From NCBI GenBank assembly GCA_013286765.1, contig JABDFB010000002.1, positions 5,833 through 69,832 on the forward strand: DNA of 64,000 nt, in the 5' to 3' direction. The translations under genes were made by a program, and so were the position numbers. Positions 13,033 to 31,784 of the stretch are shown piece by piece; position 1 is the first letter of the stretch, and each line of letters begins with the position of its first letter. Source of the stretch: Deltaproteobacteria bacterium. Its GTDB lineage: Bacteria; Bdellovibrionota; UBA1018. The notes under the pieces are model-generated. The model worked only from the letters and a program-made list of their open reading frames with translations. It was not told where the DNA came from and searched no databases.

Positions 13033-14370
13033 ATGCAACAGAATAATACTTCAGCAGAGTTAAGGGCAGAAATTCTCGAAAAGAGTAGAGCGTTTTATGA
13101 GATCTCTTATTCAAAAAGGGATTTCATTCCAGGTGAGACTTACATCCCCGCCACAGTAAAAGTAATGGATAGTCAGGACCTATCGTCTCTGATTGATGCA
13201 TCGCTAGATATGTGGCTGACAGCTGGGCGCTATTCAAAAGATTTTGAAGCAAAACTGCCTAGGTTTTTTGGCAGAAAAGTACCAGCCCTTCTAGTCAATA
13301 GCGGGTCTAGTGCTAATTTGTTGGCCGTAAGCTGTTTGGGATCCAGTTTTCTTAAAAAAATGAAATTAAAACCACTGGAAAAAGGCGACGAAGTAATTAC
13401 AGTTGCCGCGGGTTTTCCAACAACTGTCAATCCAATTATTCAAAACGGCTGGGTTCCTGTTTTTGTCGATGTCGATCTAAAGACTATCAACGCTTTGCCG
13501 GAAAAAGTGATGGAAGCAAAGACGTCGAAAACGCGAGCGGTTGTTTTGGCGCATACGCTAGGAAATCCCTATCGTTCGGATATTCTGGCGGATTGGTGCC
13601 GAAAAGAAGGCCTCTTTCTTATTGAAGACTGTTGTGATGCACTGGGATCTACTATTGGTGAATCGCCTGTGGGTTCATTCGGTGATTACGCCACTGTGAG
13701 TTTTTACCCGGCCCATCATATTACGATGGGTGAGGGCGGCGCAGTTATGAGTAAGTCCGCGCAGCTTAGAAGAATCGGTGAGAGCATTCGTGACTGGGGA
13801 AGAGACTGCTGGTGCGATCCTGGAAAAGATAATACTTGTGGCAAGCGATTTGGATGGCAGCTTGGAAGTCTCCCGTGCGGCTACGATCATAAATATACGT
13901 ACTCGAATATTGGCTACAATCTCAAAGTTACCGATATGCAGGCCGCACTCGGCGTTTCTCAGCTTCAAAAAGTGGAAAAATTCGTAGCAACCCGTCGTTC
14001 TAACTGGAAGAAACTATCCAATTGGGTGAAATCGTCGCCGAAGTTGGAAGGTAAATTAATTCCGGTTGAACCGACCGAAGGAACGAATCCAAGTTGGTTT
14101 GGATTCCCCATCCACTGTGCGCCTGGGTTGAGTCGTGAATCAATTACGACTTTCTTGGAAGATAGCAAGGTGGGAACGCGTCTTCTCTTCGGAGGAAATT
14201 TAACGAAACAACCAGCTTACGAAAATATCGAATTCCGAGTTTGCGGTGAATTGACCGCAACAGATCAGATTATGCAACAAACGTTTTGGATTGGTGTCCA
14301 TCCTGGTTTGGACGAAAAACGGATGGAGTATATGATTGATCAATTAGAAAAGGCTGTTGGACAAGCGTAA
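13033..14370 (+). CDS. rfbH: CDP-4-keto-6-deoxyglucose 3-dehydrase (E1/RfbH family)
   Basis: A 445-residue PMP-dependent iron-sulfur dehydrase that removes the C3 hydroxyl of CDP-4-keto-6-deoxyglucose on the way to 3,6-dideoxyhexoses. The aminotransferase fold is evident (VNSGSSANLLAVS near residue 90, IEDCCDALGS near 200). The usual PLP lysine is replaced by His in FYPAHHITMGEGGA, diagnostic of this dehydrase group. A Cys cluster (DCWCDPGKDNTCG, then LPCG) fits the [2Fe-2S] site. A CCGGAG ribosome site precedes the ATG. The pathway partners rfbF and rfbG lie about 15 kb away at 28858-30726. The E3 reductase usually paired with E1 is not visible in the window. Confidence 0.92.
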   Translation: MQQNNTSAELRAEILEKSRAFYEISYSKRDFIPGETYIPATVKVMDSQDLSSLIDASLDMWLTAGRYSKDFEAKLPRFFGRKVPALLVNSGSSANLLAVSCLGSSFLKKMKLKPLEKGDEVITVAAGFPTTVNPIIQNGWVPVFVDVDLKTINALPEKVMEAKTSKTRAVVLAHTLGNPYRSDILADWCRKEGLFLIEDCCDALGSTIGESPVGSFGDYATVSFYPAHHITMGEGGAVMSKSAQLRRIGESIRDWGRDCWCDPGKDNTCGKRFGWQLGSLPCGYDHKYTYSNIGYNLKVTDMQAALGVSQLQKVEKFVATRRSNWKKLSNWVKSSPKLEGKLIPVEPTEGTNPSWFGFPIHCAPGLSRESITTFLEDSKVGTRLLFGGNLTKQPAYENIEFRVCGELTATDQIMQQTFWIGVHPGLDEKRMEYMIDQLEKAVGQA

Positions 14371-14386
14371 TTTGAATAAGCAAAGT

Positions 14387-15553
14387 ATGGGCTATATCAT
14401 TTGGGCACCTGATTACGTTACGAATTCCGCTGGAGTAAAGTGTCTCTATATCCTTTGTGACTTGCTCAATCAAAACGGGTATTCCTCTTATATTGCAGGT
14501 TCTGAAAGAACGGATCCATCGCTCCAGGCACCTTTGATTTCGATGGATGAAGCTCGAAAAAAAGTCCGTCAAGAAGGATTTGTGGCCGTCTACGCCGAGA
14601 CTGCACTTGGAAATCCACTTGGGGCAACCAAAGTAGCGCGTTGGGTTTTGAATAAGCCGGGATTGCTGGGTGGATCTTTTGTCTATGATAGTAAGGAGTG
14701 GGTTTTTACTTACTCTGACGTCTATAAAGAACATATAAAAAATAGCCTGGCTGGAAAACTCTATCTCCCAACTATAGATCAAGAACTGTTCTTTAACGAT
14801 GGTAGGCCTCTTGAGGGACGGAATCTAGAGTGCTTCTACGTGGGCAAATCCACTTATAAAGAAGGGTATTTTAACAAAGAGGTTGTGTTTGAAATTACCC
14901 GTCAAACCCCACCCCGAAGGGAACTGGGAAAACTCTTTCGTGCTAGCCGAGTTCTCTATTGTTTTGATAATAGTAGCGTTTTAGCCTACGAAGCGATTAT
15001 GTGCGGGTGTCCTGTGGTAGTGATTCCCGATGGAAGCCACGTCCGTTCGGATTATGAAAAACTCGAACTAGGGATGAATGGCCTAGCCTGGGGTTTAGGA
15101 AAATCCGGAGAAGAGTTGGAACGTGCGAAATCCACGGTTCATCTAATGCCAGCACACTACGAACAAGTGAAATCTGATTTTTCTAAGCAATTAGATCTGT
15201 TTTTGGAGATCTCCCAAGGAAAAAAGGTGGACCAAAATGGGCAAAAGTCGGTGCTCAAGTTAGGTGGCGCTCTCCCTAAGACCGCCTGTGAAAATTGTTT
15301 TATTTTACGGGATCAGAATGAAATTCTGAATAAACAACTTGATGCGGTCTATAATGAGTTGGATGCTATCAATAGATCAAAAACGCGTGTGATCTCAAAA
15401 AACGTGGATATCTACCTGCCGGGGTTGAAGAAGGTTTTACTTCCTCTGGGAGGCGGATTATATTACGGACTTCGATTCTTTCTCAGGTCCTACAAGTTTG
15501 TGATGCGAAGTTTTTCCGGATTACGATTCAAAGAGAAAAATCTAATGCTCTAA
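14387..15553 (+). CDS. Probable glycosyltransferase of the polysaccharide locus
   Basis: About 388 residues. The N-terminal segment (GYIIWAPDYVTNSAGVKCLY) resembles the donor-independent half of GT-B glycosyltransferases, and YCFDNSSVLAYEAIMCGCPV near residue 200 fits the nucleotide-sugar-binding E-x7-E-like region of GT4-type enzymes. The C-terminus has a short helical, coiled-coil-like stretch and a basic amphipathic segment that could touch the membrane. I prefer the ATG at 14387; TTG codons at 14357 and 14372 are in frame and would overlap the rfbH stop. No strong ribosome site is visible. It would transfer a sugar to the glycan; donor and linkage cannot be told. Confidence 0.6.
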   Translation: MGYIIWAPDYVTNSAGVKCLYILCDLLNQNGYSSYIAGSERTDPSLQAPLISMDEARKKVRQEGFVAVYAETALGNPLGATKVARWVLNKPGLLGGSFVYDSKEWVFTYSDVYKEHIKNSLAGKLYLPTIDQELFFNDGRPLEGRNLECFYVGKSTYKEGYFNKEVVFEITRQTPPRRELGKLFRASRVLYCFDNSSVLAYEAIMCGCPVVVIPDGSHVRSDYEKLELGMNGLAWGLGKSGEELERAKSTVHLMPAHYEQVKSDFSKQLDLFLEISQGKKVDQNGQKSVLKLGGALPKTACENCFILRDQNEILNKQLDAVYNELDAINRSKTRVISKNVDIYLPGLKKVLLPLGGGLYYGLRFFLRSYKFVMRSFSGLRFKEKNLML

Positions 15554-15703: not shown

Positions 15704-17422
15704 ATGAATAAAAACCTTTTGCTGACGGTGCTGATTCCTACATACAATCGAGGGCGCTTCCTAGATACACTTTTAAAATCGCTAAGTGGCTCCAGCATTC
15801 TAAATGACCCCTCAAAAGTTGAGGTAGTAATTGCTAATAATCGGTCGCAGGACAATACAATTAGTGTTATCCAAAAATATGAAAACCGCATAAGCAATCT
15901 TCGTGCGATTAATTACGAAGAGCATGTCCGTACAGCTGAGGAAAATGTTTTTAGAAGTTTCAAAGAGTGTATGGGAGAATACACATGGATTTTAGGTGAT
16001 GATGATCTCCCAGCCCTTGAGACGCTCGACAATGTACTAAAAGAATTAGAAAAAAATTGTCACGATTTTCTCATATTCAACTCACCCGTAATTGGTCCAA
16101 ATTCGACAATTCCCAGCAATGTTACTCTTCGGATGCTAGGGGGGCAGCACAGCGCTGATATAGTCGAAATAGCGATTCACAACGGATATTGGTTTGTTTT
16201 GGCCGGGATGTCGAGCCAGATAATGAGAACCCGGTATATTAAGGCTTTTGATTTTCAGCCTATCACTAACATTAGTTTAATTTATAGCCACGTTACAGCT
16301 TATATCGAATGTTACCATGGAAAGGTAACGACTTGCTTTAACTATCCATTGGTTTGGTACAGACTCTCCTACCATGACGACCAACATTGGAAGAAAGCTT
16401 CAAAATTGCATGATGTTTTTGATGAGTATTTCTGGACGCTCGGGTTCATACGGCAGTTAAAATATCTCATCAGTAAAAATATATTTGATAAATATTCGTT
16501 GTTTTATATGTTGGACCAGAATGACTATGTTCGGTTCAGGTTGGTCTATCATGTTTGTGAGAAGCTCTTTCACCAGGTAAAAGCAAGCCGAAAAACTACG
16601 GATTCGCGACAAAAGATAGGTCGGGCAGAATTTTATGAAATGGTCGATTTTCTTATGGAAACCTCGAACTTATTACGAGAATTTCTGTGGGATCTGGAGA
16701 CCTACTATGAGTTGCCTTTGATTCCAGAGGCCAAAGGTAAAAGCGCGCTGAAATGGCGTTTCGTTCGCGCAGCTAAAAAGAAGCAACGCGAGGAAGCGTT
16801 GAAAGTTGAATCTAATCTCGCCAAGAAGCTAGACGAGAATATCAAAAACTGCAGTTCAACAATTCTTTATGGGTTTTTTGTTCGTCGATACGGAAATTAT
16901 TCGATCTATCGTATTGGAACAAGGTATTTCTGTGTTTATAACGGACAAGAAAAATATCTGGAATGGCAGTTGTGGTATGTCGACGTTGTCGAGTGTCCAC
17001 CCTATTTTTATATTGCCCAGACTCTGGAAGGTGCACTTGAGCGGCTTCGAATCCTAGAGAGGACTTCAGATTTTGTTGACGAAGCGGGAAGTTATGCACT
17101 ATTTATGGATTCTGAATGGAATAGGAAGCCCGATCCTGACGCTGACGCTGAAGACGAACGGAACCTGGAGGAGAAGGTAGAAGAATTGCTGATCATCGCG
17201 AATGAAAGCCGCGAGGCAGCTGCACTCCAAGGAAAGCGGCCAAAGAGTTTTGCCGAGCTGTCCTATATGATTTTAAGAAAATCTTATCTTATCGTGAGAG
17301 ATCGGTACCGTGCTCATAATAAAGTGCCTGACCAGTTGAATGATAAACTGATTCGTCAAATGAAAAGACTTCCTGGCCAATTTCAGGGAAAAGAAAAATG
17401 GAATCAAAGAATTACCTATTAA
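15704..17422 (+). CDS. Family 2 glycosyltransferase with long C-terminal extension (paralogue 1)
   Basis: A 572-residue protein. The first 220 residues or so are a GT-A family 2 domain: TVLIPTYNRGRFLDTLLKSL, VVIANNRSQDNT, and the metal-binding DXD in WILGDDDLP near residue 105. The remaining 350 residues are not a standard GT2 domain: mixed helical sequence with DEYFWTLGFIRQLKYLI, then LYGFFVRRYGNYSIYRIG and a final FAELSYMILRKSY segment. The same arrangement is found in the next gene, so the extension belongs to this subfamily. The 3' end overlaps the next gene by 25 bp. Role: sugar transfer onto the surface glycan, acceptor unknown. Confidence 0.85.
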   Translation: MNKNLLLTVLIPTYNRGRFLDTLLKSLSGSSILNDPSKVEVVIANNRSQDNTISVIQKYENRISNLRAINYEEHVRTAEENVFRSFKECMGEYTWILGDDDLPALETLDNVLKELEKNCHDFLIFNSPVIGPNSTIPSNVTLRMLGGQHSADIVEIAIHNGYWFVLAGMSSQIMRTRYIKAFDFQPITNISLIYSHVTAYIECYHGKVTTCFNYPLVWYRLSYHDDQHWKKASKLHDVFDEYFWTLGFIRQLKYLISKNIFDKYSLFYMLDQNDYVRFRLVYHVCEKLFHQVKASRKTTDSRQKIGRAEFYEMVDFLMETSNLLREFLWDLETYYELPLIPEAKGKSALKWRFVRAAKKKQREEALKVESNLAKKLDENIKNCSSTILYGFFVRRYGNYSIYRIGTRYFCVYNGQEKYLEWQLWYVDVVECPPYFYIAQTLEGALERLRILERTSDFVDEAGSYALFMDSEWNRKPDPDADAEDERNLEEKVEELLIIANESREAAALQGKRPKSFAELSYMILRKSYLIVRDRYRAHNKVPDQLNDKLIRQMKRLPGQFQGKEKWNQRITY

Positions 17423-19005
17423 CTATTTTAATCCCCACTTACAATCGAGGGCACTATCTGAGGCAGTTGCTCCGCCTCTTTAAAGAGTCGGGGGTATTAG
17501 CGGAAGATCATAGAATTCAGCTTGTAATAGCAAATAATTGCTCGAAAGATTCTACTCTCCAAGTTGTAGCTGAATATTCAGACGTTTTTCCAAACTTCAA
17601 GCTATTAAATTATACCGAGCATGTCTCCTCTGCGGAAGAAAATGTCTTTCGGAGTTTCAAGAATTGCGATGGAGAATATACTTGGATTTTGGGCGATGAC
17701 GATGTTCCATTTTTTGAAAATCTAGAAACGGTAGTTCGCGAGCTCGAGACGAATGTGCACGACTTCCTTCAACACAATATTGCTGTTGTAGGCCGAAAGG
17801 GAAAGATCACGAGCGAAGCTGTCCTCAGGATGCATAACGAAAAATGGACTGGGGATGTTCGGGATCTGGCCTTGCATAATGGCTGCTGGTACGTGATGGC
17901 GGGGATGTCTAACCAGATTTTGCGGACTTCTCTTGTAAGAGACTTTGATTTCCAAACTGTGACTAAGATTGGTCTGATCTATAGTCACGTGACGGCATAT
18001 CTTCTCTGTTTTTCAGGAAGGGTAACGACCTGTTTTAACTATCCCATTGTTTGGTATAAAGTAATAGAAGGGGATAATGATCACTGGTCGAGAGCTGCCA
18101 AAAAACACAACGTTTTTACTGAGTACTTTTGGACTCTGGGATGGATTCGACAAATAAAGTTTCTTATCGGAAAAGGAATTTTGCAGAAGAGCGATCCACT
18201 TTATTTGTTGGAACACAATGATCGCAAAAAGTTCAGGATGCTTAATACCATGCATCAGAAACTTTTTGATCAAGTGAAACTGGGGCGAATTAGTAAAGAT
18301 CCTAGAGAAAAAATGAGTGAGTCGGATTTCTACGAGATTTATAATTTTCTTCTTGAGACGAATATATTCTTTAGGGAAACTCTTTGGGATATCGAAAGAT
18401 ATTATAAACTATCAATGGAGAATAAAGGGCTCTTTTCTAGAAAAAGAGCTGAACAAGAATCTCTTCATATGGGAATTGATGATCGATTCAAGGTATTCAA
18501 CTCTTCGCTTCTCTATGGTTTTTTTGTAAGGCGGTACAAGGGCTATTCGATCTATAAAATAGCTCGGCGTTATTATGGTATTCGGAGTGATCGTAAGGCG
18601 CTCTTAGAGAAAGAAATACAATTTGTTGATGTGGCGTCGCAACCGCCGTACCTGTTTACTTCAGAAAGCTTAGACCAAGTAATGAAATTGGTCGATCAAA
18701 ATGGAGAAGATTCAAAACTTCAAGAATTGAAACCGCATACGGGTGATTTCGGTTACGATAGATTCTCAAGAGGAGACGTCTCTTTTAATAGATCTTTGCT
18801 TCCCGACGGGCAATTTATTCCAACTGAAGACGGTACGCTCATCGATTTAAATGGTAATCCCGTTATGGATGAAAATGGCGAACCCATTCAGCTTGAGAAA
18901 AAGAATCCCACCACCTACGCTGAATTATCATACCTTATAGCTCGGAAGGGATACTGGGTACTAAAGAGAATTTACCACGATCTCAAGAATGCTGTTGGAA
19001 TTTGA
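17398..19005 (+). CDS. Family 2 glycosyltransferase with long C-terminal extension (paralogue 2)
   Basis: A 535-residue homologue of the preceding protein along the whole length. It has LTILIPTYNRGHYLRQLLRL, VIANNCSKDST, WILGDDDVPFFE (DXD), DEYFWTLG-like EYFWTLGWIRQIKFLI, LYGFFVRRYKGYSIYKIA and YAELSYLIARKGYW. The start overlaps the upstream stop region by 25 bp, so the pair is translationally linked. A stretch near residues 460-500 (DGTLIDLNGNPVMDENG) is specific to this copy. Tandem duplication followed by divergence is the simplest explanation; the two may add successive residues or act on alternative acceptors. A long hairpin element follows the stop. Confidence 0.85.
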   Translation: MESKNYLLTILIPTYNRGHYLRQLLRLFKESGVLAEDHRIQLVIANNCSKDSTLQVVAEYSDVFPNFKLLNYTEHVSSAEENVFRSFKNCDGEYTWILGDDDVPFFENLETVVRELETNVHDFLQHNIAVVGRKGKITSEAVLRMHNEKWTGDVRDLALHNGCWYVMAGMSNQILRTSLVRDFDFQTVTKIGLIYSHVTAYLLCFSGRVTTCFNYPIVWYKVIEGDNDHWSRAAKKHNVFTEYFWTLGWIRQIKFLIGKGILQKSDPLYLLEHNDRKKFRMLNTMHQKLFDQVKLGRISKDPREKMSESDFYEIYNFLLETNIFFRETLWDIERYYKLSMENKGLFSRKRAEQESLHMGIDDRFKVFNSSLLYGFFVRRYKGYSIYKIARRYYGIRSDRKALLEKEIQFVDVASQPPYLFTSESLDQVMKLVDQNGEDSKLQELKPHTGDFGYDRFSRGDVSFNRSLLPDGQFIPTEDGTLIDLNGNPVMDENGEPIQLEKKNPTTYAELSYLIARKGYWVLKRIYHDLKNAVGI

Positions 19006-19283: not shown

Positions 19284-20363
19284 CTACAACCCTCTCTCGT
19301 AAATTGCTCTTTTCAACTTTTCATTATTTGCGTAAGGGCTACCGATGTCATCTATTTTGATAGGTTCATCTTGCTTGACGGCGCGAAGTAATACTTCACC
19401 TCGCATAAATTCTCTGCAGGAGATTTGACCCTTCTGAAGCGGAATGGCCAGGTATACATCGGCTTCGGTGAGAACATGGCCTTCTGGCAAATCTCTTTTT
19501 GGATAGAGTCCTCGCACCAAGGAGTCCAGATACTTGATCTCCTTCTCCGGAGGTGTGCGTTTAGTTAGGCCTACAGGACCACACATTTCGACGGCTTTGT
19601 GCCAGGCTTTAAACCATGTGTCTACTTGCTCTGGGAGCGAATTATACTTAGCAGTAGGAATAACTCCATCATCAATATCGATATGTCTCTCGAAGGTCCG
19701 AGCACCCTTGGCATAGGCCATCATTACGGAAGAGCTCCAATCGTGATATTCGTGAGTCGAATATCCGATAGTATGATTAGGATAACGATTTCTTAGAAAG
19801 TCAATTTGGTTGATTTCGACTTCATTATCTTCGGACGGGTAGATAGAAACACAATGATTAATTGCGATCGGAATATGTCTCTTTTCGAAGAAGCTGACTA
19901 GATCGTCAATGTCTTTGAGTGAGGAGCCGCCGGTAGAAAAGATAACTGGCTTTCGTGTGCTAGCAATTTTTTCGATGAGGAACCAGTCGTTAATATCAGA
20001 ACTTGCAATCTTGATAATCTCGATTCCTAGTTCTTCGCAAAGGTCAACCGAAACTTCGTCGAAGGGTGTGCACATGGGGATGCAGTTATTTTCCTTTATG
20101 CTCTTGACCATGGTTGCGTAGTCTTCGTTGGAAACCTTAGTGTCGATGGTTTTCTTAATATAACGAATGTCGGTTCGATTACGAAAGTCTTTATGAATAA
20201 AATTATCGACATCTCGGAATTGCAGTTTTATGGCGGCGCGTACGTTATTGAACCGAACGATTTTGCCGTAATCAGAAATGATTCGAAGACCTCGGCTCAG
20301 CTTTCCCCAATGATTATTGGCCAATTCTAAAACAAACAAACCATCAAAAATATCCCGATTCAT
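19284..20363 (-). CDS. NeuB-like 3-deoxy-ulosonic acid synthase with SAF domain
   Basis: About 359 residues: a TIM-barrel N-terminal part of the NeuB/SpsE family (LELANNHWGKLSRG, CTPFDEVSVDLCEELG, IKIASSDINDWFLIEKIA, TGGSSLKDIDDLV) and a C-terminal antifreeze-like SAF domain from about 295. Known members condense PEP with ManNAc or related sugars to sialic, legionaminic or pseudaminic acids. Two usually conserved spots differ: GYSTHEYHD where GYSDHT is common, and FERHID where EKHF is common, so the substrate may be unusual. An ATG at 20363 or an in-frame TTG at 20369 could start it; a GGGAG lies upstream. It is the last gene of an operon with a HAD phosphatase, sugar kinase, AroB-like cyclase and SDR. 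Confidence 0.85.
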   Translation of the reverse strand: MNRDIFDGLFVLELANNHWGKLSRGLRIISDYGKIVRFNNVRAAIKLQFRDVDNFIHKDFRNRTDIRYIKKTIDTKVSNEDYATMVKSIKENNCIPMCTPFDEVSVDLCEELGIEIIKIASSDINDWFLIEKIASTRKPVIFSTGGSSLKDIDDLVSFFEKRHIPIAINHCVSIYPSEDNEVEINQIDFLRNRYPNHTIGYSTHEYHDWSSSVMMAYAKGARTFERHIDIDDGVIPTAKYNSLPEQVDTWFKAWHKAVEMCGPVGLTKRTPPEKEIKYLDSLVRGLYPKRDLPEGHVLTEADVYLAIPLQKGQISCREFMRGEVLLRAVKQDEPIKIDDIGSPYANNEKLKRAIYERGL

Positions 20364-20399
20364 GAGCAAGTACTCTCCCTGTTGTTATTATGACCAAGC

Positions 20400-21062
20400 T
20401 TATAGCATTTCTAAGAGATCCACTACACCATTAACCACAAAGTTAGGCTTTAATTCTAGAAGGGATGAACTCTCGTCATATCCTTGAAGTACTGCCACTG
20501 AGTGAATACCGACTTCTCGGGCAGCCAATAGATCACTTCTTGAATCTCCTACCATTATGACTTCGGGCAGGTGAAGTGACCATTTCCTAACTACTGTTTC
20601 TAACATTTGGGTTTTAGTTAAGCTTACGGATTTGCTACTGTCAAGGCAAACCACGTCTCGAAAGGGTCCAAGTTTTTTTATTTCGATTATTTTTCGTGTT
20701 GGGAATTCTCTCTTGTTTGTCGCGATGTAGGTGTAGATCCCTCGAGAATGAAGAGTCTCCAGAAGAGGAGATACACCTTCGAATACAGACGTCTTTGTGT
20801 AGTCGGAGTTGTCATACAAAGTCTTGAACTCCTTTGCAATTGCTACGATTTCTTGAGGGCTCAAAGAAGGATTGATAGAACTTATAATTTTATCAAGAGG
20901 GGGGCCTATGAATTTCTTCATTACATTCAAGTTTGCAGAAATAGGATTTCTGTGGCCGCTCAGTTCGAACGCTTTCCCAAGACAGGATAGAACTTCATCG
21001 GCAGAATCAATGAGAGTTCCATCTAAATCAAAAATAAAGTGGGAGTAGTATTCGAGCGTCAT
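20400..21062 (-). CDS. HAD-superfamily phosphatase
   Basis: 220 residues with the full HAD set: FDLDGTLIDSADE (nucleophile Asp) at the N-terminus, YIATNKR (motif II), Lys in the LTKTQML region, and MVGDSRSDLLAA (motif IV). An all-helical cap sits after motif I, as in phosphoglycolate/N-acylneuraminate-9-phosphatase-like enzymes. The frame is open further upstream, but the ATG at 21062 overlaps the kinase gene's TGA (ATGA), which fixes the start. Between a NeuB-like synthase and a sugar kinase, it probably dephosphorylates an intermediate of the same pathway. Confidence 0.8.
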   Translation of the reverse strand: MTLEYYSHFIFDLDGTLIDSADEVLSCLGKAFELSGHRNPISANLNVMKKFIGPPLDKIISSINPSLSPQEIVAIAKEFKTLYDNSDYTKTSVFEGVSPLLETLHSRGIYTYIATNKREFPTRKIIEIKKLGPFRDVVCLDSSKSVSLTKTQMLETVVRKWSLHLPEVIMVGDSRSDLLAAREVGIHSVAVLQGYDESSSLLELKPNFVVNGVVDLLEML

Positions 21063-22453
21063 GTTTCCCATTTTGCCTGCAACTTTTGGTTTTCTTGGGT
21101 CATCGTCGATAGGTTTTTTAAACCTTCTAGTGTTTCGTCGGCAGTAGCGTGTCCTTGCTTTACTTCTCTGCCTGTAACATTTGCTATAACTCCAGAAATA
21201 ACTGGGATCTTTTGAGGAATACCGCCGCTTACTATAATCTGCTTTAAGACATGGTCTGGATCGATTTTCTCTATAAGATCGCAATACTGGTAAGCGAGCG
21301 TTCTGATTAGCGATGCGAGATAATTTTTAAGCGAAAGAGAACCTTCCTGTATTTCTTGAATCGATCCACCGGAGGAGTAATTCCATCCACCAGGAAAAAA
21401 AGATAGATTCATCTTAAGAGTGGAATTAAGAATATCTTCCATACTAAGGGTAGTTAGAATGTCCCAAAACGAAAGGTTATTGACGCCGCAGGCTTTAGCA
21501 ATGTCTTCCAGAAAGACCATACAAACGTTCAGAGCTCTGCCTGCTGGAATATGAGTGATGGTCGCAAGTCTCCGACCTTCAAAATAGGGACGATACTCTA
21601 GTATTTCAACTTTGTTGGGATAATCAATAATGGATACTTGTGAGCCGGTTCCGATATTAACAGAAATAGTTTTTGAAGGAAGATTTCCCGCGCCTAAGAC
21701 TGCGCAAGGGTGATCTCCAACACCCAGATATACGGGAATTTGTTTTTGCCGGTATTTCATGGTCGCACTGGGTACGACCGCCTCAGTCACTTCATTAAAA
21801 GCCACTCTTTTGCCCGTACGTTCGAGAATATATTCTTGCAGTTGAGTCGAGGGACGATGTGTGTTCAGGTCATAGAATCCAAGACCAGCAGCCATTGTTT
21901 CGTGTGCAATATTCCTGTGCGCGTCGACGCAGATCGATAGCCATTCTGGTAGCGAAATAATTTTACATGGTTTTGGTAGATCCGCATTCTGCGCTAAGTG
22001 GTAGAAATTAGAAAAGGGAAGACTGGGACGCAGACGCATTCCCGTAATGCTCTTATAAAAACCAGAACAGTCTTTGCTAATTTGGGCGAAAGTGGATGTA
22101 TCCCCACTGCCTTCGAGTGACCGTTGGTCTTTCCAACTGATATAGGGAGTAAGGGGTTTGTTATTCTCGTCGGTGACTATGAAGCCATGCATTTCACTGC
22201 AAATGAGAATTTTTTCAACAGAGAAATTAAGGTCTTGTATATAGGTTTTGCACAAACCTAAGAACGTGGACTTAATAGTATCCAAAGAAACTTCGTACTT
22301 CTGAGCTTTTTCGCTCAGCTGAGCTTGGACGAGATTGGGCGAAGTGGGCTGGCTCTGCGGATGGGAAAATTCTCCTGTCGATAAGTCCAAGAGAATAGAC
22401 TTAATTCGTGAAGCACCGAAGTCTAGAAGCAAAGCATAGCGCTGAAGACTCAA
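21059..22453 (-). CDS. FGGY-family carbohydrate kinase, sedoheptulokinase-like
   Basis: 464 residues of the FGGY fold: an N-terminal phosphate-binding strand (LLLDFGASRIKSILLD), SEMHGFIVTD and YISWKDQRS in the sugar pocket, LGVGDHPCAVLGAGN, VNIGTGSQVSIID (second phosphate motif) and IIVSGGIPQKIPV near the ATP site. The MHG and WKDQR patterns recall sedoheptulose/xylulose kinases; I cannot confirm the substrate. The start is TTG overlapping the upstream TGA (TTGA at 22453-22450). Sedoheptulose kinase activity would yield sedoheptulose 7-phosphate, which is also the GmhA substrate and the usual substrate of C7-cyclitol cyclases. Confidence 0.75.
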   Translation of the reverse strand: MSLQRYALLLDFGASRIKSILLDLSTGEFSHPQSQPTSPNLVQAQLSEKAQKYEVSLDTIKSTFLGLCKTYIQDLNFSVEKILICSEMHGFIVTDENNKPLTPYISWKDQRSLEGSGDTSTFAQISKDCSGFYKSITGMRLRPSLPFSNFYHLAQNADLPKPCKIISLPEWLSICVDAHRNIAHETMAAGLGFYDLNTHRPSTQLQEYILERTGKRVAFNEVTEAVVPSATMKYRQKQIPVYLGVGDHPCAVLGAGNLPSKTISVNIGTGSQVSIIDYPNKVEILEYRPYFEGRRLATITHIPAGRALNVCMVFLEDIAKACGVNNLSFWDILTTLSMEDILNSTLKMNLSFFPGGWNYSSGGSIQEIQEGSLSLKNYLASLIRTLAYQYCDLIEKIDPDHVLKQIIVSGGIPQKIPVISGVIANVTGREVKQGHATADETLEGLKNLSTMTQENQKLQAKWET

Positions 22454-23598
22454 TGAAATACCTCTTGAATAATCGTTTTAATTTCAGAAGTAAGCTCATC
22501 GTTAAGAGGGAGCGACAAAAATTTCATCTGGCCGATCGAATGAAGGATCACGAAATTGACAGTATTTCCTGTCGTTTTCTTGTCTTTTTTCAAAAGACTT
22601 TTGAGTTTTTCGCTATCAACGTTGAGAATTCTCTTTTTTAAGTGAGCTGGAATCAGGTTTGATGCCATCCCTTTGATCAAGTCCGATTCTTTTCGGGGTA
22701 AGAGATTCCTTCGGACGCTTAACTCGTTGACAATGAGAACACCCATCGTAACTGCTATCCCATGTGGAATTTCATACTCGGAAATGACCTCAAGCGCGTG
22801 TCCGATCGTATGCCCGTAGTTCATACTTCTTCGGAGATCAAGCTCAAATTCATCTTCCTCGACTACCGCTTTTTTAACAGCAAGGGAGCCAAGGACTAGC
22901 GCTAATGCCTGTGCGTTAGTGAGAGTGTCCACCCCCTGAAAATTTCTTAGAAAATTCTCGACTCCAGGTTTTCCACCCGTAATATGTAGTTTTATAACCT
23001 CGCCTAGTCCCGATACAATTTCGTGTTGGCTCAGGGTTTTTAAAAAACCGCAATTAATTATAATCTGTGATGGAGCAGAAAAAAGGGCGATCTGGTTCTT
23101 TGTCTGCTTGTAGTTAAGCCCCGTTTTTCCGCCAATGCAACTATCACACTGAGATAAAAGCGTTGTTGGAAAATAGACCCAAGGAATGCCCCGCTTAAAT
23201 GTTGCGGCCGCGTAGGCTCCTACGTCCTGAATGATTCCGCCGCCGACAACTACCAGCTTTTCTCCCTTGGTAAGTTTATTAAAATTCATGAAGTCAACCA
23301 CAGAGAGCATGCCGTCAACCGTCTTAAAATCTTCGGTCGCTTTTGCCTTCAAAATTTTGTTACTTGGATGAGTGATGCAGTCGCCGTAAAGCTCCCAAAC
23401 TCTTTCGTCGATTAGTAGAAGATAGTTTGGATCTTCCGAGAGGATTTGCTGGACAGTCTTTCCGGGTTTTTCGTTTGTGTCAAAAATAACAGAATAGGGT
23501 CTTGGAACAGATTTTACTTCAAATCGAATTTTGTCAGCGATGGGTGGTATCTCTAGAGAAAACTCCTTTTCTTGAATTTTAAATGTTGATGGATTCAC
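22450..23598 (-). CDS. AroB-superfamily sugar-phosphate cyclase (dehydroquinate-synthase-like)
   Basis: 382 residues. The NAD site (GEKLVVVGGGIIQDVGAYAA) and PTTLLSQCDSCIGGKTGLN follow dehydroquinate synthase. GLGEVIKLH, NYGHTIGHALE and PHGIAV supply the zinc Glu, His and His. It departs from housekeeping AroB in IIQDVGA (usually VIGDLAG), in KQTKNQIALF, and in an N-terminal extension of about 40-50 residues. The GHTIGHALE segment is nearer AroB than the valiolone synthases I recall. The GTG start overlaps the SDR stop (GTGA), and the neighbours are glycan genes, so a dedicated carbocycle-forming enzyme is more likely than shikimate synthesis. A second aroB elsewhere in the genome would support this. 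Confidence 0.8.
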   Translation of the reverse strand: MNPSTFKIQEKEFSLEIPPIADKIRFEVKSVPRPYSVIFDTNEKPGKTVQQILSEDPNYLLLIDERVWELYGDCITHPSNKILKAKATEDFKTVDGMLSVVDFMNFNKLTKGEKLVVVGGGIIQDVGAYAAATFKRGIPWVYFPTTLLSQCDSCIGGKTGLNYKQTKNQIALFSAPSQIIINCGFLKTLSQHEIVSGLGEVIKLHITGGKPGVENFLRNFQGVDTLTNAQALALVLGSLAVKKAVVEEDEFELDLRRSMNYGHTIGHALEVISEYEIPHGIAVTMGVLIVNELSVRRNLLPRKESDLIKGMASNLIPAHLKKRILNVDSEKLKSLLKKDKKTTGNTVNFVILHSIGQMKFLSLPLNDELTSEIKTIIQEVFH

Positions 23599-24290
23599 TC
23601 CTGAAACCCTCCAATTGAATAGCCGCCGTCCGCAACAATGTCCTGTCCATGAATGAAGTTATTCTGCGAGGAACAAAGAAAATAGGCGATGTGAGCGATG
23701 TCTTCCGGTTGTCCGAGCTTATTTCCTAAAGGTATCTTTCTCTCCAGCGAGCGAATAGTATCGCTATCATTATTCTTGCGAGTCAATTTCGTATCAATAA
23801 ACCCCGGGGAGATAGAATTGACTCGAATATTAAAAGGTCCCAATTCCAACGCTAAGGTTTTGACAACTCCGTTTAGGGCATGCTTGGCGGTGGAATAGGC
23901 TAGTCTACCAACGCGAGAAAAGGAGCCGTAGAGGGAGGAAATGGCTAATATGGATCCTGATTTTCTTTCTTTAAAAGACGGGATCAAAACCTGTGCCGTG
24001 TATAGGAATCCCAGGGTATTCACTGAAAGCGCTGTTTCGATGTCTTCCCGGGAAACGCTTTCTACCTTCTTTGGATTATTCCAGCCGGCACTTTGGACGA
24101 GTACATCATATTCTTTCGAATGAGTAGCAAAGTAACTATCTATTGCCTTTGGATTGGTGAGATCAAGATCCTGGCGGCCAAGGCTGGTCACTTGATCGCC
24201 AGCTTCACGAAATCGTTGGACGATTGCGCTTCCAATGTCTCCGTGCCCCCCTAGAACCAATACTCGACGAGTTATAGATGAATTTGCCAC
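23595..24290 (-). CDS. Short-chain dehydrogenase/reductase
   Basis: 231 residues with a Rossmann N-terminus (VLVLGGHGDIGSA, a variant of TGxxxGIG), QSAG in place of NNAG, the catalytic Ser in AISSLYGS and the YSTAKH catalytic Tyr-Lys near residue 150. It ends with GQDIVADGGYSIGG, typical of classical SDRs. The gene starts with GTG and is the first of the five-gene minus-strand operon ending in the NeuB-like gene, divergent from wzm. It probably reduces or oxidises a keto group of the sugar or cyclitol made by the operon. Confidence 0.85.
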   Translation of the reverse strand: MANSSITRRVLVLGGHGDIGSAIVQRFREAGDQVTSLGRQDLDLTNPKAIDSYFATHSKEYDVLVQSAGWNNPKKVESVSREDIETALSVNTLGFLYTAQVLIPSFKERKSGSILAISSLYGSFSRVGRLAYSTAKHALNGVVKTLALELGPFNIRVNSISPGFIDTKLTRKNNDSDTIRSLERKIPLGNKLGQPEDIAHIAYFLCSSQNNFIHGQDIVADGGYSIGGFQE

Positions 24291-24444
24291 AAAGTTTTAG
24301 GTATCGTATAAATGCTAGGTTAGTCAACGTTCATCTGAAGCGATCTAGCGCAGCTGCTTGGGCAAAAAAAGGAATGCCGATTGCTATCTAGAATGGATAT
24401 ATCGAAAAATAAATTGTATTATAAGGAACTTAGGATTGTCTGCA

Positions 24445-25248
24445 ATGTCATCAAAAAGCACTACTCTTAACACCCTTCTATTTGATCCTTTCTGCTTAAG
24501 AAAGAAATTTTTGGTTTTCAACCTTGTCAGTCGAAATCTGAAGATAAAGTACCGACGGTCGATTGTGGGAATATTTTGGACCCTTCTATCTCCCACTGCG
24601 ATGGGATTTGTTTATTATTTTGTATTTAAAATTATTTTGAAAGTACAAATTCCCCACTATTTGGCGTTCGTACTCAGTGGTGTGATGCCTTGGGCTTTCT
24701 TCAACCAGACCGTGCTTGAAGGTATGGAGTCCATTGTTGGAAATTGGGGAATTGTTTCGAAAGTTCCGATTCCTATTCAAGTATTTTCCTATGTGAATGC
24801 TCTTACCAATTTAACAACCCTATTTTTAGCAATTCCTGTCTTGATAGGCGCGTCAGTTTTTACAGATGTTCCCCTTAGCCTCTCAGTGCTCTGTCTCCCG
24901 TTTTTACTACTTGCACTTTTTCTTATCGCCTATTTTGTCTCGCTTATCCTAAGCATTTTGTTCGTATTTTTTAGAGATTTAAGGCATTTAATGGGGATTA
25001 TTCTTCAACTCTGGTTTTATGCTACACCAGTGATTTATGAAGAAGGAATGATCCCGAACAAACACCGCTGGATCATCGAGGTCAACCCTTTAGCGACGGT
25101 TTTTATAGCCATCCATAAAGTCATGGCGCAGGGAGTTTGGCCTACTCGAGTTGAACTACTTACTGTCGCCTTCTGGTGCGTATTTTTCTATTTGATTGGT
25201 AATTTGGTTTTAGTATTCGGCAGGCGTGAGATTGTGGAAAATATATGA
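24445..25248 (+). CDS. wzm: ABC-2 polysaccharide exporter permease (Wzm)
   Basis: About 267 residues of inner-membrane permease with roughly six hydrophobic segments. The N-terminal part has the family feature LVSRNLKIKYRRSIVGIFWTL; PWAFFNQTV, VSLILSILFVFFRDLRH and LWFYATPVIYE follow. The frame is open from 24358, but ATG 24445 has AGGA 9 nt upstream and begins at the usual place. The stop overlaps the ATG of the ATPase gene (ATGA). With Wzt it would move completed lipid-linked polysaccharide across the inner membrane, making this an ABC-dependent rather than Wzx/Wzy locus. Confidence 0.92.
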   Translation: MSSKSTTLNTLLFDPFCLRKKFLVFNLVSRNLKIKYRRSIVGIFWTLLSPTAMGFVYYFVFKIILKVQIPHYLAFVLSGVMPWAFFNQTVLEGMESIVGNWGIVSKVPIPIQVFSYVNALTNLTTLFLAIPVLIGASVFTDVPLSLSVLCLPFLLLALFLIAYFVSLILSILFVFFRDLRHLMGIILQLWFYATPVIYEEGMIPNKHRWIIEVNPLATVFIAIHKVMAQGVWPTRVELLTVAFWCVFFYLIGNLVLVFGRREIVENI

Positions 25249-26000
25249 CGACCCCTGTAATTAGTATAAAAGACGTCAGGAAAGATTTTCGTTTCTGGGA
25301 CGATCGTCCGACAAGCGTCAAGACGATGTTGGTGGACATTCTCAAAGGAAAACTTCGATTTGGCATTAAAGAAGAATTTACAGTCTTAGAAGATATCAGT
25401 TTTGACATTTACCCGGGGGAGTTTGTTGGAATCATGGGCCGAAATGGTGCCGGCAAAAGTACCCTCTTGAAACTCATTTGTGGAATTTATAGTCCTACGA
25501 GTGGAACCATTGAAGTTAATTCGCAAATCGCTCCTCTCATCGAATTAGGTGCTGGCTTTGCCGGAGACTTGTCGGGGTATGAAAATATATTTTTGAACGC
25601 TGCTATCTTGGGGCTTGGAAGGAAAGCAACAGAGAAAGCGATGGCAGGAATTTTAGAGTTCTCGGAGCTGGGCGAAATGATCCAAATGCCCGTGAAAAAC
25701 TACTCGAGTGGAATGCTAGTTCGGTTGGGCTTCTCTATTGCCGCCCACTTGCCGTTCCCCATTCTTTTGATTGATGAAATTCTTGCTGTGGGCGATGCCG
25801 GATTTCAGATCAAATGCATTAATAAAGTAAGAGAAATGCATCAGGCAGGGCGAACTATAGTGCTCATTACCCACAGTCCGGAGGCGGTGAAACAAAACTG
25901 CCAGCGCTGCATTGTCATCGAACAGAAAAAGAAAGTTCATGATGGTTCAGTCGAAGAGGGTGTGAATCTCTATTTGCGATCGGTATGCCCTACGGTCTAA
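25245..26000 (+). CDS. wzt: ABC polysaccharide exporter ATPase (Wzt/TagH type)
   Basis: 251 residues with Walker A GRNGAGKST near residue 65, signature YSSGMLVRLGFSIA near 150, Walker B ILLIDEILAVGD near 170 and the switch His in LITHSPEA. The protein ends shortly after the nucleotide-binding domain, so it lacks the C-terminal carbohydrate-binding domain of O9a-type Wzt and cannot read a chain-terminating cap that way. The 3' end overlaps the convergent glycosyltransferase gene by 11 bp. Confidence 0.92.
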   Translation: MTTPVISIKDVRKDFRFWDDRPTSVKTMLVDILKGKLRFGIKEEFTVLEDISFDIYPGEFVGIMGRNGAGKSTLLKLICGIYSPTSGTIEVNSQIAPLIELGAGFAGDLSGYENIFLNAAILGLGRKATEKAMAGILEFSELGEMIQMPVKNYSSGMLVRLGFSIAAHLPFPILLIDEILAVGDAGFQIKCINKVREMHQAGRTIVLITHSPEAVKQNCQRCIVIEQKKKVHDGSVEEGVNLYLRSVCPTV

Positions 26001-28857: not shown

Positions 28858-29685
28858 TTACCGAGAATCTCTGGGGTACCATGGTGCTTTTCCTGCGTCC
28901 CATAACTCTTGAAGGAACATCTTATCTCTCAGTGTATCCATCGGGCGCCAGAATCCACGATGCTCGTAAGTCATAAGCTGTCCGTCTTGTGCTAGTTGGA
29001 ACAGGGGAGTTCGCTCAAGAATGCAGCTTTCATCAGTATCTAAGTAATCCCGAAATTTTGCATTAAAGATGAAGAATCCGCCGTTAATTAAACCTTGCTT
29101 ATCTTCGGGCTTTTCAAGAAAGCCGGTGACTTTACCTCCGGATTGAACATCCAGTTCTCCAAAACGAGCCATTGCTGGAACTCCTAGGACGGTTCCAATT
29201 CGGCCGTGTCCTTGGTGGAATTCCATTTCGTTGATTAGATTGGCGTCGGTCAGGCCGTCTCCATAAGTCACTGCGAAGTGGGAGATCTTTTCCTCGCGAC
29301 AAGTTTCGTCAAATGCGCGTGCGACTCTCGCTCCTGTCATCGTATTTTGCCCAGTATCAATGACTCGCACTCGCCATCGTTCCTGAGTATTATTCTCGCC
29401 GAAGGTCGAAAATTTTCGGTCGTTCGATTGTCGATTATCGATCATGATATGATTGAGGCGATAAACATAGTTCAAAAAGAATTGTTTGACCTCCCAAGAC
29501 CGATAACCAGCGCAAATAATAAAATCGTCAAATCCAAAAGAATAGTACCACCGCATGATATGAAGCAGAATAGGTGTATCGCCAATTTCAATCATGGGTT
29601 TGGGCTTCAAGTGAGTTTCCTCAGAGAGCCTCGTGCCTAGACCGCCAGCCAAAATAAAAACAGGAATGTTTTGCATTTTTTTCAT
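28858..29685 (-). CDS. rfbF: Glucose-1-phosphate cytidylyltransferase
   Basis: About 275 residues of sugar nucleotidyltransferase making CDP-glucose from CTP and glucose 1-phosphate. FILAGGLGTRLSEETHLKPK at the start, IGDTPILLHIMRWYY, VTYGDGLTDANL near 130, NGGFFIFN and FWRPMDTLRDK are characteristic of RfbF/AscA. Starts at 29685 or 29676 are both possible; the ORF opens further upstream to 29715. It diverges from rfbG with only about 21 bp between start codons, so at least one promoter must lie inside the other gene, or both genes are read from more distant promoters. Confidence 0.93.
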   Translation of the reverse strand: MKKMQNIPVFILAGGLGTRLSEETHLKPKPMIEIGDTPILLHIMRWYYSFGFDDFIICAGYRSWEVKQFFLNYVYRLNHIMIDNRQSNDRKFSTFGENNTQERWRVRVIDTGQNTMTGARVARAFDETCREEKISHFAVTYGDGLTDANLINEMEFHQGHGRIGTVLGVPAMARFGELDVQSGGKVTGFLEKPEDKQGLINGGFFIFNAKFRDYLDTDESCILERTPLFQLAQDGQLMTYEHRGFWRPMDTLRDKMFLQELWDAGKAPWYPRDSR

Positions 29686-29706
29686 AGCTTGATTAAAACC
29701 TGTAAC

Positions 29707-30726
29707 ATGGTTCAAAATTTATCTCATCGTGCCTCAACTTCCTGGAAAGAGTCAAAGGTATTTATCACAGGCGCTACGGGTCTTCTCGGTTCGCATTTAA
29801 CGCGCTTCCTCGTTGACAGTGGTGCTGAAGTTGTCGCTCTGGTACGTGACTCAGTGCCGCGTTCTCTTTTCTATGATGCTAGTCCGGAGTGGTCTCTTCA
29901 CTCGAAGGTAGTCACTGTTCGCGGTGGGGTTGAAGATTTTTTTCTGATCGAACGCATCCTCAACGAATATGAAATTGATACTGTTTTTCATCTTGCGGCA
30001 CAGACAATCGTAGGAACTGCGAATCGGAATCCCGTCGCGACCTTTAAAACAAATATTGAAGGCACCTGGAATATTCTGGAATCAGCTCGGATCCATCAAA
30101 AGAAAATAAAAAGAGTCGTAGTTGCTTCTTCTGACAAAGCCTATGGCAATTTAAAAGGCGAGTCATACAACGAGAGCTTTGCATTGGCTGGTGAGCATCC
30201 TTACGATGTATCGAAGAGCTGCGCGGATTTGATTACCCAGGCCTATGCGAAGAGTTATGGCGTTCCTGCAGCAATCACTCGGTGTGGAAATTTCTTTGGC
30301 GCTGGGGACTTGAACTATAGTCGTATTATCCCGGGAACGATTAGAGATGTTCTGCAGAATCGTTCGCCCGTGATTCGAAGCAACGGGAAGTTTATTCGGG
30401 ATTATATTTATGCGGAAGATGGTGCAATGGCTTACCTGACGCTGGCTGAAGCCATGCTTGGATCGTCTGGGAGCACAAAATTTATTGGAGAGGCGTTTAA
30501 CTTCTCGTATGGATTACGGTTAAACGTTATTGAAGTCGTCGATAAGATTCTTACGATGATGAATAGGACCGAATTGCAGCCGCGAATCCTAAACGAAGCT
30601 AATAACGAAATACCGGTTCAGTGTTTAGATAGCACCAAATCAAAGTCTCAGTTGGGGTGGCAACCTAAGTACGGTTTTGACGACGGACTGCGAAAGACGA
30701 TCCAATGGTACCAACAACTAAACTAG
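29707..30726 (+). CDS. rfbG: CDP-glucose 4,6-dehydratase
   Basis: About 339 residues. Extended SDR with VFITGATGLLGSHLTRFL, FHLAAQTIVGTANRNP (typical of this CDP-glucose branch), SSDKAYG, and the catalytic YDVSK near residue 160; RDYIYAEDGAMAYL follows. It makes CDP-4-keto-6-deoxyglucose, the substrate of RfbH. The ATG at 29707 is chosen because it places the Rossmann motif at the usual distance; the frame is open from 29671. The gene overlaps the next one by 22 bp. Confidence 0.93.
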   Translation: MVQNLSHRASTSWKESKVFITGATGLLGSHLTRFLVDSGAEVVALVRDSVPRSLFYDASPEWSLHSKVVTVRGGVEDFFLIERILNEYEIDTVFHLAAQTIVGTANRNPVATFKTNIEGTWNILESARIHQKKIKRVVVASSDKAYGNLKGESYNESFALAGEHPYDVSKSCADLITQAYAKSYGVPAAITRCGNFFGAGDLNYSRIIPGTIRDVLQNRSPVIRSNGKFIRDYIYAEDGAMAYLTLAEAMLGSSGSTKFIGEAFNFSYGLRLNVIEVVDKILTMMNRTELQPRILNEANNEIPVQCLDSTKSKSQLGWQPKYGFDDGLRKTIQWYQQLN

Positions 30727-31784
30727 AAGCTTTTTTTGCTCGTGATTTTGAGCGTGCGTGTTCCTCTGTGTCCGGTGGGGAAGCCGAGGAAGTGTGGAAG
30801 TCCCTGCAATTTGGCAAGGTCTTTCTTACCGGTGGGACCGGTTTTTTTGGATCCTGGCTTTTGCGCCTCTTTCAGTGGGCGAATCAACACCATAATGCGC
30901 AAATCGAAGTGACGGTCCTCAGCCGAAATCCAGCACAGTTTCAGCAGCGCAACCCGGATTTTGCGAGGCTTCCTTTTTTACGTTTTGTCAGCGGCGATGT
31001 GCGAAATTTTGAGTTTCCGAGTGGTCACTTTACTCACATTATTCATGCTGCCACTGAGGCGAGCGCAAAACTGAACGAAGGTGATCCTCTATTAATGCTG
31101 GATACGATTACTCAGGGTACGCGCCGAGTACTCGATTTTGCGAGAACTTGTAAGCAGGCAAGACTTTTATTTACCAGTTCAGGTGCAGTTTATGGGCGTC
31201 AACCGTCTGAGCTGACTCATATTCCAGAGATATATAGTGGTGGCCCAAATATTCTTGCAGCTACATCCGCTTACGGCGAAGGCAAAAGATACGCTGAGTT
31301 GCTCTGCGCAATTTACTACCGCACTCATGGCATTATTCCAATTATAGCGCGATGCTTCGCTTTTGCAGGACCGTACCTTCCCATGGATGCGCATTTCGCA
31401 ATTGGAAATTTTGTGAAGGATGCTATAGACGGTCCAGTCATTCATGTTCAGGGAGATGGGACGCCATTTCGTTCTTATATGTATGGGGCAGACCTGGCAT
31501 TTTGGTTGCTTCGCATTTTGTCTAATGGAAATCCCGGACATGCTTATCATGTCGGATCTGAAAATGATTATTCCATTGAAGATATAGCCCATATTGTTGC
31601 CGATGTGGCCGGGCATCTGAAAGGACATTCCGTCGCCGTAAAGATTGCTAAGCAACATAAACCCGGTCATCTTGCTGAGCGTTATGTTCCAAAGACGGAG
31701 AAGACCCGCAGCGAGTTAGGCCTGCGCGAAAACTTCAGCTTACAAGATTGCGTCGAAGCAATGTACCGATATTCGCAATTGTAA
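30705..31784 (+). CDS. NAD-dependent epimerase/dehydratase
   Basis: 359 residues of extended SDR: KVFLTGGTGFFGSWLLRLF near residue 40, HAATEASAKLNEGDP, TSSGAVYGRQP, and YGEGKRYAE (catalytic YxxxK) near 190; RSYMYGADLAFWLL and HVGSENDYSIEDIA close the sugar-binding part. It resembles nucleotide-sugar dehydratase/epimerases of glycan loci. Translationally coupled to rfbG by a 22-bp overlap, it probably acts on the same CDP-sugar series, perhaps as the 4-ketoreductase or an epimerase. Confidence 0.8.
   Translation: MVPTTKLEAFFARDFERACSSVSGGEAEEVWKSLQFGKVFLTGGTGFFGSWLLRLFQWANQHHNAQIEVTVLSRNPAQFQQRNPDFARLPFLRFVSGDVRNFEFPSGHFTHIIHAATEASAKLNEGDPLLMLDTITQGTRRVLDFARTCKQARLLFTSSGAVYGRQPSELTHIPEIYSGGPNILAATSAYGEGKRYAELLCAIYYRTHGIIPIIARCFAFAGPYLPMDAHFAIGNFVKDAIDGPVIHVQGDGTPFRSYMYGADLAFWLLRILSNGNPGHAYHVGSENDYSIEDIAHIVADVAGHLKGHSVAVKIAKQHKPGHLAERYVPKTEKTRSELGLRENFSLQDCVEAMYRYSQL

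What the first reader, a model, noticed from the sequence alone, without database searches (positions are those of the whole stretch)
19284..24290. Five-gene operon that may build an unknown carbocyclic or keto-acid sugar for the surface glycan
Seen: an overlapping minus-strand operon SDR - AroB-like cyclase - FGGY kinase - HAD phosphatase - NeuB-like synthase inside a polysaccharide locus, beside the Wzm/Wzt exporter, with gmhA and a transaldolase 7 kb away. Known: AroB-family cyclases close C7 sugar phosphates or DAHP into carbocycles; NeuB enzymes condense PEP with an aldose into 3-deoxy-ulosonic acids; FGGY kinases can make sedoheptulose 7-phosphate. Two routes are conceivable: sedoheptulose to its 7-phosphate to a C7 cyclitol, reduced by the SDR; or a NeuB-type keto acid phosphorylated and cyclised. 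Either would give an unusual glycan component. I know of no described pathway with this exact gene set. The cyclase differs from AroB in its NAD loop (IIQDVGA) but keeps GHTIGHALE, so its product is open.
Basis: partly seen in the sequence, partly recalled or inferred. Interest (0 to 1): 0.75.

Follow-up and report, generated by a model that had tools for sequence, protein, structure and literature searches.

The report
Cyclase cassette for branched surface sugar
A bacterial surface-glycan locus carries five genes that look like part of an undescribed route to a ring-bearing, branched sugar, and relatives of the same gene set occur in distant bacteria and, as one compact operon, on bacteriophage-type contigs.

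Summary
The five minus-strand ORFs are real and overlap as an operon. The cyclase is not AroB: with TIGR04425-type proteins it forms a clade (100/99) apart from the AroB, sedoheptulose-cyclase and EboD rows tested, yet it keeps the DHQS active-site residues checked, most of which the sedoheptulose cyclases have replaced. In relatives the unit sits beside a YerE/JanthE-type ThDP carboligase and a PEP/pyruvate C-C enzyme (NeuB, HMGL or HpcH): 37 of 39 ThDP loci against 1 of 38 others. Sixteen distinct IMG/VR loci carry NeuB-ThDP-SDR-cyclase-kinase in that order; phage hallmarks were seen in two of them. Proposed: NeuB makes a 3-deoxy-2-keto acid, the kinase phosphorylates it, the DHQS-like enzyme expels phosphate and closes a ring (or makes an omega-deoxy chain), the SDR reduces it, and the unit joins a C-branched CDP-3,6-dideoxyhexose. 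No ThDP gene lies in this window; its genome is not held. Nothing was assayed; substrates, step order and product are inferred. The kinase-aldolase link has few independent origins and one counter-example.

The parts
19284..20369 (-). NeuB-family synthase (PF03102+SAF), 361 aa; spsE-like, far below the sialate and pseudaminate NCBIfam cut-offs
20400..21062 (-). HAD phosphatase, 220 aa, start ATG 21062 in ATGA overlap with the kinase stop
21059..22453 (-). FGGY-fold sugar kinase, 464 aa, D11 and D247 present
22450..23598 (-). DHQS-like cyclase (best NCBIfam hit TIGR04425, below its cut-off), 382 aa
23595..24290 (-). SDR oxidoreductase, 231 aa
13033..14370 (+). RfbH (CDP-4-keto-6-deoxyglucose 3-dehydrase type), over cut-off
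28858..29715 (-). RfbF-like glucose-1-phosphate cytidylyltransferase (286 bits, cut-off 300)
29671..30726 (+). RfbG-like CDP-glucose 4,6-dehydratase (203 bits, cut-off 278)
30705..31784 (+). epimerase-family protein, 49% identical to the gene beside ThDP in L001 and 44% to one in L098; reductase role inferred
24358..26000 (+). Wzm/Wzt-type polysaccharide exporter (two genes)

Best explanation
The five genes are the window's share of a conserved pathway that builds an unusual side unit of a CDP-activated 3,6-dideoxyhexose for the surface polysaccharide. NeuB joins PEP to an aldose to give a 3-deoxy-2-keto acid (the HAD may remove a phosphate). The FGGY kinase phosphorylates the terminal hydroxyl. 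The DHQS-like cyclase oxidises the sugar, expels the phosphate and closes a cyclohexanone ring, and the SDR reduces the ring ketone. RfbF/G/H make CDP-4-keto-3,6-dideoxyglucose, and a YerE/JanthE-type ThDP carboligase (beside the cassette in relatives, not in this window) makes the C-C branch. Shown: gene content, families, active-site residues, phylogeny and co-occurrence. Inferred: all substrates, the order of the ThDP and cyclase steps, and the product.
Confidence: 0.45

Rival explanations
1. Non-cyclising variant: kinase, DHQS-like lyase and SDR act as an omega-deoxygenation unit. The enzyme expels the terminal phosphate without ring closure, giving a methyl ketone that the SDR reduces. 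The resulting 2-keto-3,omega-dideoxy acid stays an alpha-keto acid and is the ThDP donor, as needed for caryophyllose-like branches.
For: Leaves the alpha-keto acid intact for the ThDP step and uses every gene; keeps a carboxylated substrate, in line with the DHQS residue set. ErwE prefers hydroxylated alpha-keto acids and MMAR_2332 is said to be similar (PMC12247030, passages). Caryophyllose's terminal methyl is recalled.
Against: No member of the superfamily is known to me (recalled) to stop before ring closure. The terms dehydroquinate, aldolase and acetolactate do not occur in the main text of the three mycobacterial LOS papers queried, so they give no precedent.
Confidence: 0.22
2. Sedoheptulose route: the FGGY kinase makes sedoheptulose 7-phosphate, the cyclase makes a C7 cyclitol, the SDR reduces it, and NeuB serves a separate sugar.
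For: FGGY-fold kinase, nearest folds xylulose and gluconate kinases, tied with glycerol and L-fuculose kinases; gmhA and transaldolase 7 kb away; the window's GmhA clusters with SIS genes beside type-A cyclases; EVS precedent (PMC5133447, passages).
Against: Cyclase outside the sedoheptulose-cyclase clade and without most of its residues; sedoheptulose 7-phosphate is a central metabolite that needs no kinase (recalled); a NeuB/HMGL/HpcH partner is nearly constant in ThDP-linked loci; no transaldolase and only weak GmhA matches near relatives.
Confidence: 0.15
3. Two independent units side by side: NeuB-HAD for one sugar, SDR-cyclase-kinase for another.
For: Each occurs without the other: NeuB-HAD with ThDP in L130; SDR-cyclase-kinase with HMGL in L008 and L009.
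Against: In these three loci a ThDP gene is present too, and 16 viral loci carry NeuB, ThDP, SDR, cyclase and kinase in one fixed order.
Confidence: 0.1
4. A divergent housekeeping AroB for aromatic amino acids.
For: All DHQS residues checked are kept; 4 of 9 subfamily-B genomes show no other AroB of note.
Against: Tree position; score 255 against an aroB cut-off of 305, with TIGR04425 scoring higher; sugar-locus and viral contexts.
Confidence: 0.04

Closest known systems
TIGR04425, AroB-related putative sugar phosphate phospholyase (cyclizing)
   Same: Best NCBIfam hit; shared clade 100/99; C154 and G199 in 77 of 77 cyclases compared
   Different: 312.9 bits against a cut-off of 400; the window belongs to a sister clade tied to ThDP genes and mostly to the FGGY kinase
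DHQS / AroB
   Same: Fold and the set of active-site residues checked
   Different: Separate clade, sugar-locus context, C154 where 34 of 34 AroB rows have S or A
YerE/ErwE/JanthE C-branched sugar pathways
   Same: CDP-3,6-dideoxyhexose genes; relatives carry the ThDP enzyme and aldolase-type partners
   Different: No cyclase or dehydroquinate term occurs in the main text of the review queried (PMC12247030); the ThDP gene is absent from this window
Sedoheptulose 7-phosphate cyclases (EEVS, DDGS) and EboD
   Same: Superfamily and fold
   Different: Other clade (DDGS not in the tree); 6 to 7 of the seven diagnostic residues differ
NeuB sialate/pseudaminate synthases
   Same: NeuB and SAF domains; the two His aligned with recalled metal ligands are kept
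   Different: 118 and 111 bits against cut-offs of 400 and 340; no CMP-transferase match in the 45 of 50 window ORFs of 150 aa or more that were scanned

Membership tests
AroB (DHQS) | Falls inside the AroB clade | tested here: not met
   70-row tree, separate side 100/99
AroB (DHQS) | Catalytic residue set | tested here: met
   position equivalences to A. nidulans DHQS recalled
AroB (DHQS) | NCBIfam aroB cut-off 305 | tested here: not met
   255.4 bits
TIGR04425 | Curated cut-off 400 | tested here: not met
   312.9 bits
TIGR04425 | Common clade with above-cut-off members | tested here: met
   G004, G007 and G010 members above cut-off (loci L004, L007, L010) group with it
Sedoheptulose 7-phosphate cyclase | Clade and residue signature of the 3 annotated members tested | tested here: not met
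   EVS-type enzymes were not available as rows
Sedoheptulose 7-phosphate cyclase | Activity on sedoheptulose 7-phosphate | not testable with these tools
   needs an enzyme assay
Sialic acid synthase (NnaB) | TIGR03569 cut-off 399.65 | tested here: not met
   118.5 bits
YerE-type branched-sugar pathway | RfbH in the locus | tested here: met
   627 bits, cut-off 423
YerE-type branched-sugar pathway | YerE-like ThDP enzyme in the locus | tested here: not met
   tblastn over the 64 kb, best chance match E 1.2; present in 9 of 9 related genomes
FGGY kinase | FGGY_N domain, FGGY fold, D11/D247 | tested here: met
   that D11/D247 are the catalytic and ATP-site Asp is recalled

The most novel reading that the evidence does not exclude
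Probability: 0.4. Interest if true: 0.87.

Novelty: new variant of a known kind. Interest (0 to 1): 0.72.

Why it matters
It gives a concrete, testable pathway for a cyclase family known only as putative, links it to ThDP carboligases whose physiological substrates are open (JanthE: PMC12188165, passages), and shows phage-type contigs carrying an entire cyclitol/branched-sugar operon, which bears on how phages may decorate virions or alter host surfaces.

Tried and rejected
Housekeeping AroB: rejected by tree and context. GmhA/transaldolase as parts: no transaldolase match and only weak GmhA matches (40-54 bits) near relatives. Coxiella precedent: the search listing showed no relevant gene cluster and I opened none of those papers; I did not test Leptospira. 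Bradyrhizose: the search listing gave nothing on biosynthesis. Caryophyllose: passages of three mycobacterial papers hold no dehydroquinate or aldolase term. Plasmid and phage records by tblastn (40 of 115 and 15 of 15 matching records listed): mostly AroB, sedoheptulose cyclases or unannotated matches, none above 40% identity. PHROGs has no family for the window or phage cyclase or NeuB tested at 1e-5, but one of unknown function for the phage ThDP enzyme (316 bits). Co-location by shared contig length is a proxy only: 25 lengths shared by cyclase and kinase hits, 3 also by NeuB (120 listed hits each).

Dropped before counts: searches used 89 loci (14 bacterial, 75 viral), merged to 78 at 90% identity; L216 (an AroB) was then dropped to give 77 (14 bacterial, 63 viral). 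The kinase-scan loci L132-L134, with the same gene order, are not in those counts. Partner score thresholds and an 8-kb limit (4.5 kb for gene order) were set by me. For one search, 48 of 75 candidate flank proteins were used. Trees lacked DOIS, EVS, DDGS and aminoDHQS rows.
Full report
Observation. The five ORFs are present at the given coordinates with the families named. They overlap by 4 nt at SDR/cyclase, cyclase/kinase and, once the HAD start is moved to ATG 21062, kinase/HAD. No genome is held for the window.

The same locus encodes RfbH (627 bits, cut-off 423), an RfbF-like protein (286, cut-off 300), an RfbG-like protein (203, cut-off 278) and an epimerase-family protein 49% identical to the gene next to the ThDP gene in L001. 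No CMP-transferase match was seen in the 45 of 50 window ORFs of 150 aa or more that were scanned with Pfam or NCBIfam; five ORFs that overlap others were not scanned.

Second AroB. In one search, eight of eleven cassette genomes (G001-G011) had a second superfamily match of 164 bits or more. In one search, of nine subfamily-B genomes, four had an AroB over cut-off, G086 one at 205 bits, and G001 (23 bits, broken), G002, G003 and G318 none of note. So 'only copy' is answered for most but not all relatives and not for the window.

Neighbourhoods. SDR-cyclase, often with the kinase, recurs in a gammaproteobacterial MAG (L001, no kinase), Verrucomicrobiota (L003), Bacillota (L008, L009), a genome of the Bdellovibrionota phylum (L098) and, without kinase, in type-A loci. 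Kinase relatives were rare in rank searches at E 1e-30: 1 of 144 genomes in the phylum of G010, 12 of 200 in the family of G006 (a cyclase beside the kinase in 2 of the 12 loci fetched), 4 of 194 in the phylum of G003 (1 of 4), 0 of 7 in the order of G001, 1 of 55 in the order of G086; and 0 of 369 in the class of G001 at E 1e-50. L098 shares most of the window locus: NeuB 60%, SDR 54%, cyclase 43%, kinase 30%, Wzm 60%, Wzt 68%, a 398-aa protein 35%.

The ThDP partner. A ThDP enzyme of 598 bits or more against the L001 enzyme lies on the cyclase's contig in nine of nine subfamily-B genomes; of three type-A genomes searched, one had no match and two only about 30% identical, 205-221-bit ones. 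The best solved relative of the L008 enzyme is 8rph, 423 bits, the JanthE entry by recall. YerE attaches a pyruvate-derived unit to CDP-3,6-dideoxy-4-keto-glucose, and ErwE prefers longer hydroxylated donors (PMC12247030, passages). RfbH is over cut-off in 8 of 9 subfamily-B genomes (G002: 295 bits; the G009 hit holds two stops), in G1041, in 2 of 4 type-A genomes, in 0 of 6 other genomes of that call and in 0 of 14 controls. The window itself has no ThDP gene.

NeuB. The window NeuB is a spsE-like synthase, 227 bits to 3g8r and 61-88 bits to the seven other solved relatives. The 119 relatives listed are 71-82% identical and include many Microcystis. In G002 NeuB lies with RfbF/RfbG-like genes. 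NeuB was found in 4 of 19 genomes at E 1e-30 (G086, G002, G003; G006 only 38% identical) and 1 of 147 at E 1e-100 in the order of G942. So NeuB-HAD belongs to the ThDP branched-sugar setting and the cyclase unit looks like an addition to it.

Viral contigs. Scans of IMG/VR gave 15 kinase and 75 cyclase loci. After merging (77 distinct cyclases: 14 bacterial, 63 viral) an aldolase-type partner is present in 37 of 39 loci with ThDP and 1 of 38 without (that one is the window). The two ThDP loci without are L002 and L003, short contigs whose genomes hold NeuB elsewhere. The kinase is present in 26 of 27 loci with NeuB or HMGL and 0 of 11 with HpcH only; 26 of 28 kinase loci have ThDP (not the window and L172); RfbH-like genes lie within 8 kb in 24 of 39 ThDP loci and 8 of 38 others. 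Sixteen loci have the exact order NeuB-ThDP-SDR-cyclase-kinase, all viral, and 9 have HpcH-SDR-cyclase-ThDP. On the tree L001 (HpcH, no kinase) nests beside L098 among NeuB+kinase loci, an independent swap, while L208 (NeuB, no kinase) is a counter-example; related rows make the Fisher values too strong. Of four contigs sampled for hallmarks, L132 has a UvsX-like recombinase and a single-strand binding protein, L162 a major head protein, L152 a UvsX-like recombinase, L167 only a weak amidase; L152 and L162 belong to the sixteen. Among 48 flank proteins of 22 viral loci, terminase large subunit, UvsX-like, DnaB-like helicase and ribonucleotide reductase families appear in one to three members each, glycosyltransferases and epimerases most often. 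Seventeen of 20 viral kinases appear short (305-335 aa), but D11, D247, T269-G270 and G410-G411 are kept in 20 of 20.

Mechanism. The kinase is missing where the aldolase-type partner is HpcH only, and present in 26 of 27 loci with NeuB or HMGL. This suggests that kinase and aldolase supply one and the same phosphorylated keto acid to the cyclase. With the DHQS residue set this favours a DAHP-like substrate. The unresolved point is that ring closure uses up the 2-keto group which a ThDP donor would need; either cyclisation follows the ThDP step on the branch, or the two products meet otherwise, or the enzyme does not cyclise and only deoxygenates the chain end. I put 0.45 on the keto-acid/cyclase pathway tied to the branched 3,6-dideoxyhexose, 0.22 on the deoxygenation variant.

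Literature. Ten full-text searches listed no paper that joins these genes. Of the papers opened I saw passages only (PMC12247030, PMC12188165, PMC5133447, PMC4426668, PMC5706390, PMC4403928, PMC13354803). The 2024 survey of YerE-like clusters cited in PMC12247030 is not held, so an earlier mention there cannot be excluded.

Noticed in passing
L131-L215 (IMG/VR loci): Viral contigs, several with phage hallmark genes, carry the whole NeuB-ThDP-SDR-cyclase-kinase operon, often with RfbH/RfbG-like genes.
   Followed up: partly
L130 (G1041): Microcystis-like genome with NeuB-HAD, ThDP and epimerase-family gene but no cyclase or kinase in the 20 kb read.
   Followed up: partly
L004, L005, L007, L010 and other SDR-cyclase loci (28 distinct, most viral): Type-A TIGR04425 cyclases without ThDP or kinase; bacterial ones lie with SIS, 2-hydroxyacid dehydrogenase or cytidylyltransferase-like genes (the last by sequence look only).
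   Followed up: partly
window 15704-17422 and 17398-19005: Tandem paralogous glycosyltransferases, 43.5% identical.
   Followed up: no
window 14357-15553: 398-aa protein without Pfam or NCBIfam match, conserved in L098 (35%) beside the same genes.
   Followed up: no
window 48487-52881: 1464-aa ORF without Pfam match.
   Followed up: no
L116 (G007): Third superfamily copy grouping with the EboD-type cyclase.
   Followed up: no
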